From: a virus
Length of the DNA: 48,368 bases
Strand: one strand, 5' to 3'
IMG/VR virus record: IMGVR_UViG_3300013132_000077
Span: 1 to 48,368 of that record
The notes beneath the pieces were generated by a model. The model ran no database searches. It had not been told where the DNA came from and saw nothing but the letters and a program-made list of their open reading frames with translations. Positions 19,699 to 45,274 of this stretch are shown here, in pieces. The position numbers and the translations under genes were made by a program. Positions within the stretch are counted from its first letter, which is position 1; every line of letters starts with the position of its first letter.

Positions 19699-21426
19699 AT
19701 GTCACACATTAGAATAGACAAGGCGAAAGCCACTAAGAAATGGGCACCGGTTCTTGAGAACATGGGTGTTACAGGTGATAGAGTAGAATGGATGGCAGAA
19801 TATGCTGAGTTCCACTCAATCAACGAGAACGCGTACGTTAACGCATCTAACGTAGCTGGTATGGGCGGTGTATTCGCTGCGCAGCCTGCTGCATACGCTG
19901 GTAACACAATCGGCGGTTCTTTGGCGACTGCCAATTCAGTAGGTCAAATCGGTTCAGGAGATGTTGGTCAAAACCTTCTTCCAGTTGCGATGAAGATCGC
20001 TGCTCAGACTATCGGTCTTGATCTAGTTGCTGTTAAGCCAACTCCAGGTCCGAAAATCGACCTTCTTTACATCGATTTCCAATACGATGATACAAGATTA
20101 GGAAACTCTGACGAAAGACCACAGGTTTTCAAATTGAACACTACTAACCCTACTACAGCTGCTCTTGCTGCTGCTATGAAGAGTGGTAACGGTGCTTCTA
20201 TCTCTGAAGTAACAGGCGGACTTAGAAACGGAAGATTCTTCTACTCTATCAACGCTACAGGTACTGCATCTTTGGGTGCTACCGTATCTACAGACGAACC
20301 TAGCAGCAAAGCAGGTGTTGTTGAGTTCCTAGGATTCTCTAGGATCGACGGATTCCCAATCTTCAGGGCTTTCAGACAAGCAAACACTGCTCACGGTGTT
20401 GTAGGTTCTGCTAACACTGCTTGGGCTTTCGACTCACAAAGAAACACTTTTGGTGCTACTTCTTCCATGGTTTCTCAAATCGAAAGAATCGCAGGCGTTG
20501 CAATATCCGCTGCTACTATCGAATTGGTTTCCGCATTAGAAGACCATATCCCAGGATTCTCTACTAACTTTGGAGGAGTTCCTTCAGGCGCTGCACAAGG
20601 TGCATACCCAATGTCAAGGCAAGAAGACGATGATTCTTATGCAGGAGTTATCGGTCCTAAAATCTCTTCTAAAACTATCGCGGTTGGTACTATCGAAGTA
20701 TCTTCAGCTCTTAGAAGAACTGAGATCGAAGACATCAAGGCTAACACAGGTATGGATATCGTTCAAAAAATGGAATCTATCCTTGTTAACGAATTGTCTC
20801 AAACAATCTCTAAGCAAATCGTTGCTAAAATCTTCGAAATGGGTTCTCTTAACAGAAAGTCTGCTCCTTTGAAATCAGGATCTTCTTACTCTGATACAGC
20901 TGCTTGTACACTTTTCGACCTTGATACATCTTACGTTTCAACAATGGCCGGTGGTGAGACTACTCACGCAGTTCAAAGAAAGCTTATCACTAAGATAGCT
21001 CATGCTTCCAACTACATCGCGACTGAAGGACGTGTAGGTCCTGCTCAGTACCTTGTAACAAACGGAGGTCTTGCTGCTGCTCTTCAAGACATCGCTGGAT
21101 ACACAATCAACCCAGTTAAGTCTAAATTAAACGGACAAGGTCAATTATACCCTGTAGGTTCAATAGGCGACATCGCTATCTATGTTGATCCATACATGAA
21201 GTATAACGACAACAGGATCGTATTGGGTAGAAAGAACAACCCAGACCAACCAGGTATCATCTTCGTACCATACTTGATGGCTCAGTCTATCTCAGTTATC
21301 TCTGAGGCAACTTTCGCACCAAGGATGTTGTTGAGATCTAGATATGCGGTTGCTGAAATCGGATGGTTCCCACAAAAACAATTCATGACTCTAGTAGTTA
21401 CTGACGCTGCTCAGTACCTCAACTAA
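19699..21426 (+). CDS. gp23: Major capsid protein gp23
   Basis: 575 residues (T4: 521). It has the T4/HK97-type capsid order: a helical N-terminal arm, GQIGSGDVGQNLLPVAMKI, GLDLVAVKPTPGPKIDLLY and RRTEIEDIKANTGMDIVQKM. Near the end are ATEGRVGPAQYLVTNG, YVDPYMKYNDNRIVLGRK and SEATFAPRMLLRSRYAVAEI. A likely maturation cut lies after INE (41-43, SINE/NAY), an [IL]xE site like that used by T4 gp21. Codons are more strongly biased than in neighbours, as expected for the most abundant protein. Two shorter paralogues of its C-terminal part are at 27159 and 41586. Confidence 0.95.
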   Translation: MSHIRIDKAKATKKWAPVLENMGVTGDRVEWMAEYAEFHSINENAYVNASNVAGMGGVFAAQPAAYAGNTIGGSLATANSVGQIGSGDVGQNLLPVAMKIAAQTIGLDLVAVKPTPGPKIDLLYIDFQYDDTRLGNSDERPQVFKLNTTNPTTAALAAAMKSGNGASISEVTGGLRNGRFFYSINATGTASLGATVSTDEPSSKAGVVEFLGFSRIDGFPIFRAFRQANTAHGVVGSANTAWAFDSQRNTFGATSSMVSQIERIAGVAISAATIELVSALEDHIPGFSTNFGGVPSGAAQGAYPMSRQEDDDSYAGVIGPKISSKTIAVGTIEVSSALRRTEIEDIKANTGMDIVQKMESILVNELSQTISKQIVAKIFEMGSLNRKSAPLKSGSSYSDTAACTLFDLDTSYVSTMAGGETTHAVQRKLITKIAHASNYIATEGRVGPAQYLVTNGGLAAALQDIAGYTINPVKSKLNGQGQLYPVGSIGDIAIYVDPYMKYNDNRIVLGRKNNPDQPGIIFVPYLMAQSISVISEATFAPRMLLRSRYAVAEIGWFPQKQFMTLVVTDAAQYLN

Positions 21427-21899: not shown

Positions 21900-23333
21900 A
21901 TGGCAGAAAAAAAGCATAAGATGGAGTTTTCAAAAGAGCTCGAGCAGATTTTAGCAAAGCTGGAAAAGCAGGGAAACTACGTCGCGTGGGAGCTGCTCCT
22001 TATGAACGATCCTGACGCGGGGTCAGAACTTGAGGACATAATACACAAATCTGGCGTCGAGAGAGTAGACGTTTCTGAAAAGGACTACAGCTTTGTCGTG
22101 GAGACCACTGACGGAAAGAAGACCGAGATGAAGATCGGCGCCTTCATAAGAAAGTTCTTCGGCGACTTCTATGCGAACCATGAGATAGAGAAATTCTCCA
22201 ACCTATACAACATTGCAAAAGGTGGTGGCAAGAAGAAAGGAGAGCCTATAAAGGTCGGCAAGTTCTCGTATGATCCTAAAGACGTTAGAAAGACCTTTCT
22301 TTCTCTGGTGACCAAGACCTATCCTCATGGACATGAGGATGAGCTGCTTGAGTTCCTTCCTGAGCTCAAAAAAGACCGCGTCGGAAACTACTACGTCATG
22401 ATAGGCGGAGATAAGCCTGAAACCATGTTCACTTCGCATCTAGACACCGCGGATAGATCGCAGAGGACTACATATCTCTTCAGCGACAAAGAAGGAGAAG
22501 ACGAAATCATAGTGACTGATGGAACTTCGGTGCTGGGCGCCGACGACAAGTCTGGCGTGACCGTAATGCTTTATATGATGGCACATGGAATATCCGGGCT
22601 ATACTATTTCTTCATAGGCGAAGAAAGAGGCGGCATCGGATCGCACGCGCTTGCGGACATCTTCGAAGAGGTCCCTTACCTTCACAATCTAAAGAGATGC
22701 GTTTCTTTCGACAGGAGAAACTACCATTCCATAATAACTTCCCAGATGGGTGGCGAATGCTGCTCGGATGAGTTCGCGGAAGCGCTTTGCGACGCGTACA
22801 ACCAGCATGGAATGAGCATGAAGCCAGACAATACTGGAATATATACAGACTCTGCTTCCTTCATAGACGATATACCTGAGTGCACCAACGTCTCCGTTGG
22901 ATACTTCAACGAGCATACCGGTAACGAGAAGCAGAACATATCTTTCCTGGAGAGGCTCTGCAAGGCATCTGTCTCCATAGACTGGGAATCTCTTCCGACC
23001 AAAAGGTCTCTAGAGGAGATCATCTCGTTCAGGGCGACTGAGAAGGCGGCGCGCTCGAGATATAAAGACCTGCTTGATGAGTTCAAGTCTGCCGCGCCTT
23101 CTTTGGATCGGCTTGTTTCCGTGGAATATGGAAAGACCTATGTCTGCTTCGACCTCGAAGGGTCGGACCTCGCCACGATACATGATACGCTGGAATCCAT
23201 ATTGGCGGTTATGAAGACCACCAACAATCGTCCTGAAATCGCTAAGTCTGTTCATACCTACGAACACAACTGGAGGGCAGGAAACTGTCCTGTGGAATTC
23301 GACGAGACCTATCTGAAGATAAGAATAGAATAA
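21900..23333 (+). CDS. M20/M28-like zinc metallopeptidase (copy 1)
   Basis: 477 residues. A 120-residue N-terminal extension precedes the peptidase core. The zinc and catalytic residues are in FTSHLDTAD (His180, Asp182), VLGADDKSG (Asp215/216) and GEERGGIGS (Glu241, Glu242); a later His in FNEHTG completes the set. The core is strongly similar to the protein at 44135, which lacks the extension. It probably cuts short peptides or acts as an aminopeptidase; a virion role is also possible. The extra C-terminal 110 residues (from FRATEKAARSRYKDLL) are unassigned. Confidence 0.85.
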   Translation: MAEKKHKMEFSKELEQILAKLEKQGNYVAWELLLMNDPDAGSELEDIIHKSGVERVDVSEKDYSFVVETTDGKKTEMKIGAFIRKFFGDFYANHEIEKFSNLYNIAKGGGKKKGEPIKVGKFSYDPKDVRKTFLSLVTKTYPHGHEDELLEFLPELKKDRVGNYYVMIGGDKPETMFTSHLDTADRSQRTTYLFSDKEGEDEIIVTDGTSVLGADDKSGVTVMLYMMAHGISGLYYFFIGEERGGIGSHALADIFEEVPYLHNLKRCVSFDRRNYHSIITSQMGGECCSDEFAEALCDAYNQHGMSMKPDNTGIYTDSASFIDDIPECTNVSVGYFNEHTGNEKQNISFLERLCKASVSIDWESLPTKRSLEEIISFRATEKAARSRYKDLLDEFKSAAPSLDRLVSVEYGKTYVCFDLEGSDLATIHDTLESILAVMKTTNNRPEIAKSVHTYEHNWRAGNCPVEFDETYLKIRIE

Positions 23334-23784: not shown

Positions 23785-23792
23785 TATCTTTG
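23785..23792 (+). promoter_or_regulatory. TATCTTTG promoter element of the tmRNA
   Basis: Fits TAnnTTTG and ends 23 bases before the first base of the mature tmRNA, leaving room for a short 5' leader that RNase P would remove. Confidence 0.55.
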
Positions 23793-23815: not shown

Positions 23816-24180
23816 GGGGGTGTCATAGATTCGCCTAGCAGAGTAGCGATGATTATGCAGGTATCGGGTGGCTGAATGTCCGATTTACAAATTAGGCGGC
23901 AAACGTTGTAAATGGCAACACAAATGAAGTAGGAACCCGTGAAGATCTAGTAGCGGCCCTAAAGTCAATCGGAGCTAACACTCCAGAGCTGGTTTAAGAG
24001 AGCAGCTTCAAAAAAAATTCTCCGCCTGTATCGCGCAGTCCAAATGCGAAAACCGTTCTGCGGATTCTTGGGTCAAGATCCGATATTTTGAGAGTTTAGA
24101 AAAACGTCTCTAAGCCTGTAAACGAATAATTGTTGGTAGCTGATTAGTACATGCCGGGCAGTGCGGCATCACCTCCACTA
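23816..24180 (+). ncRNA. ssrA: Transfer-messenger RNA (tmRNA)
   Basis: 365 bases, the usual tmRNA size (E. coli 363). The 5' end GGGGGTG pairs with CACCTCC near the 3' end (24170-24176), giving a 7-bp acceptor stem with the G3-U wobble that makes alanyl-tRNA synthetase charge it. GATTCG follows at 23829, as in most tmRNAs. The 3' end is ACTA (CCA not encoded). The bases before it (AAGCCTGTAAACGAATAATTG) resemble the conserved 3' part. The resume codon is probably GGC at 23914, 98 bases from the 5' end. The tag frame is unusually long (27 codons). The T loop is GGCAGTG instead of the usual TTC-type loop. A terminator follows. It rescues stalled ribosomes with SmpB; no smpB is in the window. 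Confidence 0.85.
23914..23997 (+). other. tmRNA tag-peptide reading frame
   Basis: From GGC the frame codes GNTNEVGTRED onward, passes LVAALKSI, and ends GANTPELV before TAA (27 residues). Normal tags have 8-15 residues and end in LAA. If one C of the run at 23957-23959 were absent, the tag would be 15 residues and end DLVAA before TAA. An alternative start at GGA (23971) would give GANTPELV, but it is too far from the 5' end. Confidence 0.55.
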
Positions 24181-24183
24181 AAG

Positions 24184-24213
24184 AGCCCTGATTCATCAGG
24201 GCTTTATTTTTTA
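24184..24213 (+). terminator. Terminator of the tmRNA gene
   Basis: AGCCCTGA pairs with TCAGGGCT around TTCA, followed by TTATTTTTT. Confidence 0.9.
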
Positions 24214-26229: not shown

Positions 26230-27162
26230 ATGAGTGTTATAAGTTATTTTGGTGGCAAGGCCGCCTTTCAATCGTTCATAACTCCAAAGATTCCATTCAA
26301 AGAGTGCAAAACATATCTAGAGCCTTTCTCTGGATCTTTCGCCATATATCTGGATTCCAAGATGGAGTTCGAAAACGTGATATTCAACGACCGCAACAGG
26401 CATCAGGCCAACCTGATGAGATGCTGCGCTTCTCCGCAAGAATTCCTCGTAGAGCTGAAGGCTCTCTTGGCGCCAGGCGGGCTTCTGCATACTGTCGAGA
26501 CGTCGGTCGACAAGAAGTGGGACTTCTACAAGGCGATCTACCACAGATACGTTAAGAACGAATTCCTGGACAACATGGACTTCGAGATAGGAGACTTCAA
26601 GGTCGCCGCCATCTACGCGTTCCTCATCACTTCTTCGTTCTCGAGCGTCTATCCTAGAGGCGGCGGATTCACCGGATTCAAGAAGAAGAAAGACAAGCTC
26701 AACCTCTCTATACTTATAAACAAGCTAGAGAAGAACAAATACACCGACAGGCTGCAGAACATCACGGAGTTCAACAACATGGACTTCGAGGAAGTCATAC
26801 TCAAGCACGACTCGGAAGACACGTACATCTATCTGGATCCTCCATATGCTCGATTCAACGACGTCAAGAACGACGACGATGGCAGACGCCTGTTCTGGTA
26901 TGGGTGCGACGACGAGAACACGTTTGGAGTCGCTTCTCACAGGAGGCTTCTCGAGCTTCTGAAGACCACTAAGTCTAGATGGTCTCTGTCATACTACTAC
27001 TTCCCTCTTCTCGAAGAGATACTTCCGAAAGACAAATATGTCTGGACTTCTAAAGAGTTCCACAGGCCGTCCGCTGTGATAAAGACAGAAGGCGTGGAGA
27101 AGGAGAAAGGCGTCGAGCTGCTCATCATGAACTACGATCCCGAAACAGGAGAAAGAGTATGA
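26230..27162 (+). CDS. dam: D12-class DNA adenine N6-methyltransferase (Dam-like)
   Basis: 310 residues. It opens with SYFGGKAAF (AdoMet-binding motif X), EPFSGSFAIY (motif I), and has the catalytic motif YLDPPYARF (DPPY). An insert around 205-220 (NDVKNDDDGRRLFWYGCDDE) follows DPPY. It methylates adenine, target unknown, probably to guard phage DNA from restriction. The stop overlaps the start of the capsid-like gene (ATGA). Confidence 0.9.
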   Translation: MSVISYFGGKAAFQSFITPKIPFKECKTYLEPFSGSFAIYLDSKMEFENVIFNDRNRHQANLMRCCASPQEFLVELKALLAPGGLLHTVETSVDKKWDFYKAIYHRYVKNEFLDNMDFEIGDFKVAAIYAFLITSSFSSVYPRGGGFTGFKKKKDKLNLSILINKLEKNKYTDRLQNITEFNNMDFEEVILKHDSEDTYIYLDPPYARFNDVKNDDDGRRLFWYGCDDENTFGVASHRRLLELLKTTKSRWSLSYYYFPLLEEILPKDKYVWTSKEFHRPSAVIKTEGVEKEKGVELLIMNYDPETGERV

Positions 27163-27908
27163 TCGACGATATAAGGAAGGCAATAGAAGAAGGCAGGTTC
27201 GACATCTTCGAGCCTGCCGGATTCGTTAAGAAGCGAGCTTGCGGAAATCCTGAGAGGCTCAGGATTTCGTTCGGAGTTCCGATAGACGCATCGGCAGTCT
27301 TCGGCCTGAACGTCGACATGGTCGCGGAGTTCTTGGCGCAGCTCAGGAGAGGCGTTTCGGACCAATGTCACAAGAAGATATTCGGTTCGCTGTCTGGTTC
27401 CGAGAGATATTCGGTTCGCGACCTCAGAGGAATTCCGGAATTTATGGTGGCGAAAGAGCTGATTTCCGAGATAAAGAATTCCGGATTCAGGTATGTGCTG
27501 GCTGGATCCAGGATCGCCACCATTCTCCAGGACTCCAGCGAGTTCGTCATATCTTCCGATTCTCTTTCTTCTATATCGAAGAGCAATTCCAACGTGCATA
27601 TGATAGGAAGCATATACGGCTACCAGGACGTGTATCTGGACCCCTATATGAAGTGGAACGACTCTCGCGTTATCCTATTCTCCGAAGCGAACGCCCTCGC
27701 TTCTGGATTCAAGCTGGCCGAGGCAGCGGACGAAGCGACCTTCGCGCCGAGGATAATAATAGAGATGTCTCTAGAGCATTCTGTTGGAGATTCGATGGTG
27801 CTTTATGTGAGAGACGACGAGAATCCTGACCTAGATCCTGGATTGATAGCGCGGATGAGAGACCAGAAAATAGACAATCTGCTAGATGAAGAAGATAAGA
27901 GAAGCTGA
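27159..27908 (+). CDS. Shortened paralogue of the major capsid protein C-terminus (copy A)
   Basis: 249 residues. GSIYGYQDVYLDPYMKWNDS and RVILFSEANA, then DEATFAPRIIIEMSLEHSV match the capsid segments GSIGDIAIYVDPYMKYNDNR and SEATFAPRMLLRSRYAV. The start (KAIEEGRFDIFEPAGF) and the end (DLDPGLIARMRDQKIDNLLD) differ. The N-arm and most of the E-loop/A-domain of gp23 are absent, so it cannot be a full capsomer. It could be a vertex or decoration protein, or it could interfere with other phages' capsids. It is coupled to the methylase by ATGA. Confidence 0.75.
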   Translation: MIDDIRKAIEEGRFDIFEPAGFVKKRACGNPERLRISFGVPIDASAVFGLNVDMVAEFLAQLRRGVSDQCHKKIFGSLSGSERYSVRDLRGIPEFMVAKELISEIKNSGFRYVLAGSRIATILQDSSEFVISSDSLSSISKSNSNVHMIGSIYGYQDVYLDPYMKWNDSRVILFSEANALASGFKLAEAADEATFAPRIIIEMSLEHSVGDSMVLYVRDDENPDLDPGLIARMRDQKIDNLLDEEDKRS

Positions 27909-44134: not shown

Positions 44135-45274
44135 ATGAGGATAACCAAAAAGTTCCTTTCTCTTACGAAAAAGACCTACCCTCACGGAAAAGAGCGCGAG
44201 CTCATATGCCATCTCCCATCCGGATACAAAGAAGACGGATTCGGCAACTTCTATCTGCAGATAGGAGACTCTCCTTCTACTATGTTCACTTGCCATCTAG
44301 ACACCGCGGACCGTTCGCAGTCCGAAGTGAGGCACGTCTTCCAGGGAAACATAATCAAGACAGACGGAAAGTCCATATTGGGAGCAGACGACAAAGCGGG
44401 AATGACCGTTATATTGTATATGATATCGAAAGGAGTCCCAGGCCTCTACTATTTCTTCGTAGGCGAAGAAGTAGGCTGTGTCGGTTCCAAGAAGGTCTCT
44501 GCGGCATGGCAGTCTCTTCCCTTCTCCGAGCATGTTACTAAAGTAGTATCCTTCGACCGAAGAGGCAACGAGTCCATCATAACACACCAGATGTTCGGCA
44601 GATGCTGCTCCGAATCTTTCGCGACAGAGCTTGCAAGCAGGCTGAACGCCGCAGGATGCGGGCTTTCTATGAGGCTCGACGACACGGGAATACTCACAGA
44701 CTCGGCCAAGTTCATGTCTATCGTTCCAGAGTGCACCAACATCTCCGTAGGATACCAGGCAGAGCACACTTTCGGGGAGTCTCAAGACATCGAGTTCTTG
44801 AAGAAGATAGCGAGAGCCGCTTCTCTGATAGACTGGGAGACTCTTCCGGCGACGAGAGACCCTAAAGTCGAAGACGACTGCGACTACTACGGATGGGGAT
44901 CCTTCGGCGGGTCTAGATACGACACCGGAAACTACTCGGACAAAGAGAGGGATTCCGACAAGTGGAAGGAAGAAAACTACACGCACGTCAAGCTGGATGG
45001 CAAGACTAAGAGAGTGTATATCTCGACTGATCAGATAGAAGAAGAGAAGGCTCTTATATACAAATGGCTCGGCGACCATCCAGAGTATTACGACATACAG
45101 TCTATCGTCTGGAACGGCAACTCTCTGTATTTCGAGTCGAGAAGCGGCGTTATGGAGTTCGTAGGGTCGAGATCCGAGCTGATGGACATGATTCCAGAGC
45201 TCGCGAGCGTTCCGAAGAGCGCCATATCCGAAGTCTTTCCTGGAAAGAGGAAGACCTTCATAAACTCTCTATAG
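44135..45274 (+). CDS. M20/M28-like zinc metallopeptidase (copy 2)
   Basis: 379 residues. MFTCHLDTAD (His54, Asp56), ILGADDKAG (Asp85) and VGEEVGCVGS (Glu111, Glu112) keep the zinc site, and SVGYQAEHT the last His. It lacks the 120-residue N-terminal extension of copy 1 at 21900 and differs after the core, with an acidic, Tyr-rich stretch (EDDCDYYGWGSFGGSRYDTG) and a small C-terminal alpha/beta domain. It has a host-type promoter element, while copy 1 follows a late-type site, so the two may act at different times. Confidence 0.85.
   Translation: MRITKKFLSLTKKTYPHGKERELICHLPSGYKEDGFGNFYLQIGDSPSTMFTCHLDTADRSQSEVRHVFQGNIIKTDGKSILGADDKAGMTVILYMISKGVPGLYYFFVGEEVGCVGSKKVSAAWQSLPFSEHVTKVVSFDRRGNESIITHQMFGRCCSESFATELASRLNAAGCGLSMRLDDTGILTDSAKFMSIVPECTNISVGYQAEHTFGESQDIEFLKKIARAASLIDWETLPATRDPKVEDDCDYYGWGSFGGSRYDTGNYSDKERDSDKWKEENYTHVKLDGKTKRVYISTDQIEEEKALIYKWLGDHPEYYDIQSIVWNGNSLYFESRSGVMEFVGSRSELMDMIPELASVPKSAISEVFPGKRKTFINSL

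What the first reader, a model, noticed from the sequence alone, without database searches (positions are those of the whole stretch)
23914..23997. Unusual tmRNA tag: 27 codons, not ending in LAA
The tag starts GNTNE but runs on to GANTPELV instead of a short ...LAA end. One C less in the CCC run at 23957 would give a 15-residue tag ending DLVAA. Either the phage has a long stable tag that ClpXP does not see, or there is a recent frameshift.
Basis: partly seen in the sequence, partly recalled or inferred. Interest (0 to 1): 0.75.

Follow-up and report, generated by a model that had tools for sequence, protein, structure and literature searches.

The report
Huge-phage tmRNA with long private tag
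The window, a fragment of a huge bacteriophage, carries the phage's own copy of the RNA that rescues stalled ribosomes, and the peptide it attaches to unfinished proteins is three times longer than the bacterial one and conserved across a whole group of huge phages, so it is a real design and not a sequencing error.

Summary
A tmRNA lies at 23816-24180 (+): 34 bits to Rfam tmRNA, below Rfam's cut-off, and missed by ARAGORN. Its tag, 23914-23997, is GNTNEVGTREDLVAALKSIGANTPELV-stop. Homologous tmRNAs sit at the same place, downstream of the capsid genes, in many huge-phage contigs. I recovered 51 distinct tag peptides. All have 27-30 residues, none is short, none ends LAA, and all end in Val or Ala. 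Changes are synonymous far more often in the tag frame (37% of changed codons) than in the other two frames (8% and 0.8%), so selection acts on the peptide. Helices, the pre-tag pseudoknot and a hairpin inside the tag's last third show compensatory changes. Bacteroidota, the likely host phylum, have tags of 9-10 residues ending LAA/MAA (29 of 29 read); the phage tag is absent from 395 of their genomes. All five tag-bearing phage records over 380 kb also encode SmpB and a ClpC-like unfoldase without its N-domain. ClpP is present in three of the four tested; Lon is in none of the four. Best reading: a phage-owned trans-translation system whose tag is retargeted, probably to phage Clp. The protease step is inferred.

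The parts
23816..24180 (+). phage-encoded tmRNA gene (365 nt as aligned; the CCA end is not encoded, the DNA reads CTA after the discriminator A)
   Evidence: RF00023 34.2 bits E 3.5e-12; 57 distinct homologues found by synteny; helix covariation
23914..23997 (+). tag reading frame: 27 codons GNTNEVGTREDLVAALKSIGANTPELV plus TAA
   Evidence: 51 distinct homologous peptides of 27-30 aa; synonymous fraction 37% in this frame against 8% and 0.8% in the others
23957..23959 (+). the CCC run suspected of being a frameshift; correct as it stands
   Evidence: same frame kept in all relatives
23816..23822 (+). acceptor stem, 5' strand GGGGGTG, with G3-U70 (alanine identity)
   Evidence: pairs with 24170-24176; 99.3% of cells paired over 39 sequences
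24170..24177 (+). acceptor stem, 3' strand CACCTCC, and discriminator A
24151..24169 (+). T arm: 6-bp stem with 7-nt loop GGCAGTG (not the canonical TTCRANY)
   Evidence: 96.4% of cells paired, all 6 pairs with changes on both sides; loop GGCAGTR-like in most relatives, TTCGTTA in two
23835..23862 (+). long helix P2, 5' strand
   Evidence: pairs with 24114-24147; 91-100% of cells paired, 16 of 25 pairs with changes on both sides
24114..24147 (+). long helix P2, 3' strand
23863..23900 (+). pseudoknot PK1 just before the tag (stem 1 ATCGG/CCGAT; stem 2 GCTG 23871-23874 with CGGC 23897-23900)
   Evidence: stem 1 100% and stem 2 83% of cells paired, 6 of 11 pairs with changes on both sides
23971..23984 (+). 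hairpin GGAG/CTCC inside the last third of the tag frame
   Evidence: most relatives have a hairpin near this place with compensating changes, e.g. GATCTT/AAGATC, GCTCTT/AAGAGC, GTTCTT/AAGAAC, TTGGAG/CTCCAG
23785..23792 (+). promoter-like TATCTTTG (TAnnTTTG, the Bacteroidota -7 type)
   Evidence: 36 of 57 homologous genes have TAnnTTTG at -45..-12, 3.5% in shuffles
24183..24212 (+). intrinsic-terminator-like hairpin followed by T run
   Evidence: AGCCCTGATTCATCAGGGCT + TTTATTTTTT; relatives have different hairpins of the same kind at this place

Best explanation
A working phage-encoded tmRNA. Charged with alanine (G3-U70 acceptor) and carried by an SmpB protein that the fully sampled relatives encode themselves, it enters ribosomes stalled on broken mRNAs, switches translation at GGC and adds A-GNTNEVGTREDLVAALKSIGANTPELV to the unfinished protein. 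The tag is a phage-specific signal kept by selection, in two parts: a conserved element NEVGTREDLVAAL, probably read by a binding partner, and a short hydrophobic C-terminus that always ends in Val or Ala. It probably sends the protein to the phage's own Clp machine (ClpC-like unfoldase without the N-domain, plus ClpP) and not to the host's LAA route through ClpX. Shown by sequence: the tmRNA, the frame, selection on the peptide, the structure, SmpB and Clp genes in large relatives. Inferred: charging, activity, and which protease reads the tag.
For: Full-length tmRNA match. 57 distinct syntenic homologues, 51 distinct tags of 27-30 aa all ending V or A. Frame-specific synonymous excess. Covariation in the acceptor, T arm, P2 and PK1, 0 of 500 shuffles reaching the observed values, and in the tag hairpin. 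SmpB with intact C-terminal tail in 4 of 4 large records plus a 436-kb record, in a conserved gene order with a sigma-factor-like and a thioredoxin-like gene (names by eye from the sequence). ClpC-like ATPase with D1, UVR, D2 and a GVGF loop but no Clp_N among the listed Pfam matches, 701-711 aa in the four read in full, in the same five records. ClpP with intact catalytic motifs in 3 of 4, no Lon in 4 of 4. Host-phylum tags are short and end LAA/MAA; the phage tag is absent from 395 Bacteroidota genomes.
Against: No experiment. The window is a 48-kb fragment, so SmpB and Clp genes are known only from larger relatives and not from this phage. One 385-kb record has the ClpC-like gene but no ClpP match (it may be incomplete). 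The link between the tag and any protease rests on co-occurrence only. The T loop is non-canonical, so charging and EF-Tu binding are not guaranteed.
Confidence: 0.45

Rival explanations
1. The tag is stable: by dropping LAA the phage avoids host ClpXP, so rescued ribosomes are freed while the tagged products are left intact or sequestered.
For: No relative ends LAA, while 29 of 29 Bacteroidota tags read end LAA or MAA. Phages that need ribosomes recycled may not need the product destroyed.
Against: A tag needing no reader would not be expected to keep NEVGTREDLVAAL and an invariant Val/Ala end across 51 variants. From general knowledge, ssrA variants ending LVA, AAV or ASV are still degraded in E. 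coli.
Confidence: 0.22
2. The tag is an attenuated or alternative degron still read by host proteases (ClpX, ClpC, Lon, FtsH or a tail-specific protease), only longer.
For: Hydrophobic or small residues near the end, always V or A at the end. Mycoplasma tags are also extended and read by Lon (Gur and Sauer 2008; Ge and Karzai 2009, as cited in PMC3985003).
Against: Large relatives bring their own ClpP and ClpC-like unfoldase. The conserved N-terminal half of the tag has no counterpart in the host tags seen.
Confidence: 0.22
3. Recent frameshift or sequencing error in the CCC run of an ordinary 15-codon tag ending DLVAA.
Against: Every relative keeps the long frame, many without a C run; synonymous excess in this frame.
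Confidence: 0.01
4. A decaying tmRNA pseudogene, or a decoy that titrates SmpB without coding a used tag (as suggested for the TLD-only DS6A gene in PMC4131195).
For: Scores under the Rfam cut-off; ARAGORN finds nothing; odd T loop.
Against: Covarying helices across 39 sequences, conserved frame under selection, conserved promoter-like and terminator-like elements, SmpB in the same genomes.
Confidence: 0.05

Closest known systems
tmRNA (ssrA, Rfam RF00023), one-piece bacterial form
   Same: Acceptor with G3-U70, long P2, PK1 before the resume codon, tag frame, T arm; same mechanism expected
   Different: Tag three times longer and not ending LAA/MAA; non-canonical T loop; below the Rfam cut-off; unseen by ARAGORN
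Extended tmRNA tags of Mycoplasma and Mesoplasma, read by Lon
   Same: Extended tag that departs from ALAA; reading protease believed to have changed (PMC3985003, citing Gur and Sauer 2008 and Ge and Karzai 2009)
   Different: Mycoplasma tags end AFA; no Lon match in the four phage records tested, Clp genes are present instead
Phage tmRNAs of the mycobacteriophage Bxz1 group and Bacillus phage G
   Same: tmRNA gene carried by a phage (listed in PMC4131195)
   Different: Different phages and hosts; their tags were not compared here
tmRNA and SmpB genes reported in huge phages (Al-Shayeb 2020, PMC7162821)
   Same: Same kind of phage (Mahaphage-size genomes); report of tmRNA with SmpB as translation-rescue genes
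   Different: tmRNAs there were found with ARAGORN, which misses this family; I found no tag sequence or protease partner in the passages read

Membership tests
tmRNA (RF00023) | tRNA-like domain with alanine identity G3-U70 | tested here: met
   G3-U70 in 38 of 39 sequences, acceptor 99.3% paired
tmRNA (RF00023) | T arm with canonical TTCRANY loop | tested here: not met
   Stem present and covarying, but loop GGCAGTR-like in most; two relatives keep TTCGTTA. Treated as a derived trait, since all the other structural features are met
tmRNA (RF00023) | long helix P2 joining the tRNA-like part and the rest | tested here: met
   25 pairs, 91-100% paired, 16 with changes on both sides
tmRNA (RF00023) | pseudoknot PK1 upstream of the resume codon | tested here: met
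   11 pairs, 6 with changes on both sides; stem 2 paired in 83% of cells
tmRNA (RF00023) | open tag frame ending in a stop | tested here: met
   27-30 codons in all complete copies
tmRNA (RF00023) | score above the Rfam gathering threshold | tested here: not met
   34.2 against 47 bits; none of 11 relative loci passes either
tmRNA (RF00023) | partner SmpB present | tested here: met
   in 5 of 5 records over 380 kb; not testable in the 48-kb window
ssrA degradation tag (ALAA type, ClpX substrate) | C-terminus LAA or close variant | tested here: not met
   51 of 51 tags end V or A, none LAA
ssrA degradation tag (ALAA type, ClpX substrate) | degraded by ClpXP or another protease | not testable with these tools
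   needs biochemistry
Mycoplasma-type extended tag | ends AFA and is read by Lon | tested here: not met
   no AFA end; no Lon in 4 of 4 records; host Lon not excluded

The most novel reading that the evidence does not exclude
A virus-owned trans-translation and proteolysis circuit: phage tmRNA, phage SmpB, and a phage ClpC-like unfoldase that has lost the adaptor-binding N-domain and reads the extended tag directly with phage ClpP, so that unfinished proteins in the infected cell are marked and recycled through a channel separate from the host's ClpXP.
Probability: 0.35. Interest if true: 0.82.

Novelty: new variant of a known kind. Interest (0 to 1): 0.62.

Why it matters
tmRNA tags in bacteria are short and almost always end in the same degron. 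Here a whole group of huge phages keeps its own long tag under selection together with SmpB and Clp genes. If the tag is read by phage Clp, phages would have a private protein quality-control channel and a new tag-protease pair for use in the laboratory. If the tag is stable, phages would free ribosomes without destroying the product. Either outcome bears directly on why phages carry tmRNA. The family is also invisible to ARAGORN and under Rfam's cut-off, so it is probably unannotated in many genomes.

Tried and rejected
Frameshift or sequencing error: rejected by 57 syntenic relatives. Pure RNA-structure constraint instead of a coded peptide: rejected by the frame-specific synonymous excess, although the last third of the tag also carries a hairpin. 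Tag derived from the end of a phage protein: a search of four large records found only the tmRNA itself, and the phage collection gave only the two known records. Tag shared with Bacteroidota: none of 395 genomes. Tag read by phage Lon: no Lon found. A covariance model was not built, since the RNA looked too long for the calibration limit; nhmmer and synteny sufficed. Structure prediction was not used: it would not show tag recognition.

Full report
What is there. The window is a 48,368-base viral record with portal, head maturation protease, major head protein and tail fibre genes. Its closest matches in the phage collection are two huge-phage genomes, LR745206 (634,780 bases) and LR756502 (642,428 bases). 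Downstream of a peptidase-like gene and a small gene, and upstream of a small gene and a NADAR-domain gene, lies a tmRNA at 23816-24180. It matches Rfam tmRNA end to end with 34.2 bits and E 3.5e-12, under the gathering score of 47. ARAGORN reports nothing, nor in any of 116 related loci, while it finds E. coli ssrA in a control. Eleven relative loci also give nothing over Rfam's thresholds.

The tag. Two scans of viral contigs with neighbouring proteins gave 114 loci, to which the two phage records were added; 57 distinct tmRNA sequences including the window's came out. Every complete one codes 27-30 residues of the same kind, from GKTNEVGTREDLVAALQNNMISVEDLATV to GNVTNEVGTSEDLVAALQNNLLTVNELEVA. 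A pattern scan for EDxVxxLQNN found 108 stretches; of the 80 looked at, 68 were this tag behind TAAA[CT]GG-like resume sites. Together there are 51 distinct peptides, all ending in V (27) or A (24), none in LAA (that count required E[DE]xVxxL, so the invariance of those letters is partly by construction, but the 57 from synteny were not so filtered). Loci are not all independent contigs.

Selection. Among the 29 distinct first-16-codon sequences of 27- and 29-residue tags, 953 of 2590 changed codons are synonymous in the tag frame (37%), 204 of 2543 (8%) and 21 of 2548 (0.8%) in the other two. Pairs are not independent, but the contrast between frames is large. So the peptide is conserved as a peptide, and the suspected frameshift is refuted.

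Structure. On 39 sequences a named structure of 53 pairs has 89.6% of cells paired and 34 pairs with changes on both sides; no shuffle of 500 and no slid version comes near. Acceptor stem, P2, PK1 stem 1 and T stem are almost always paired; PK1 stem 2 in 83%. In one clade (L028, L057, L087) PK1 stem 2 is weak and a simple hairpin looks possible instead (by eye). A hairpin lies inside the last third of the tag frame in most members, with stems such as GATCTT/AAGATC, GCTCTT/AAGAGC and TTGGAG/CTCCAG that change in step. This explains part of the variation there (MI..ED against ML..EE). The T loop reads GGCAGTR in most, TTCGTTA in two, which is probably why standard programs miss it. TAnnTTTG, the Bacteroidota type of -7 box (general knowledge), stands before 36 of 57 genes (3.5% in shuffles), and a terminator-like hairpin follows.

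Partners. SmpB is encoded in all four large records tested and in a fifth of 436 kb, with the C-terminal tail GKKxxDKRxTIKxRD, in a gene order shared by four phages. The same five records encode a Clp ATPase. In the genes read in full it has 701-711 residues, with two AAA domains, UVR, D2-small and a GVGF loop, an acidic leader in place of the N-domain, and no Clp_N among the 25 listed Pfam matches. ClpP is in three of four, with serine, histidine and aspartate motifs intact; Lon is in none of the four. Smaller fragments mostly lack these genes, as expected when tmRNA and smpB lie over 100 kb apart. The window itself is such a fragment.

Host comparison. Huge phages over 634 kb were predicted to infect Bacteroidetes (PMC7162821). 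Twenty-nine of 30 Bacteroidota tmRNA loci gave a readable tag, all of 9-10 residues and all ending LAA or MAA; a tag like the phage's is in none of 395 genomes (the same search method finds it in phages).

What is known. Phage tmRNAs are known from mycobacteriophages and phage G (PMC4131195). tmRNA and SmpB were reported in huge phages, with tmRNAs called by ARAGORN (PMC7162821). Extended tags that changed protease are known in Mycoplasma (PMC3985003). I found no description of this long tag family in the library, which holds open-access papers only.

Verdict. Shown: a conserved phage tmRNA family with a long, selected, non-LAA tag, and co-occurrence with phage SmpB and Clp genes in large relatives. 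Inferred: activity and destination of tagged proteins. I put 0.95 or more on a real functional long tag, about 0.45 on the retargeted phage-Clp reading as stated, and less on the stable-tag and host-protease rivals.

Noticed in passing
L061:10026-10313: The last 293 bases of the tmRNA (tag and 3' part) are identical to those of L063 but the 5' part is replaced by unrelated sequence; either an assembly join or a rearranged tmRNA.
   Followed up: partly
24151-24169 and relatives: Family-wide non-canonical T loop GGCAGTR in a tRNA-like domain; two relatives keep TTCGTTA, suggesting a derived loop.
   Followed up: partly
44135-45274 and 21900-23333: Two genes of the same peptidase-annotated family (phrog_4191) in one structural region.
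   Followed up: no
27159-27908: A 249-residue protein shares a segment of family phrog_28442 with the C-terminal part of the major head protein (19699-21426).
   Followed up: no
L374 (LR756502 361500-371500): In one phage a third, shorter ClpP-like gene lies about 2.6 kb upstream of smpB; the other three phages lack it there.
   Followed up: partly
L365, L366, L367, L368: Phage ClpC-like ATPases lack the Clp N-domain and begin with an acidic leader of about 50 residues.
   Followed up: partly
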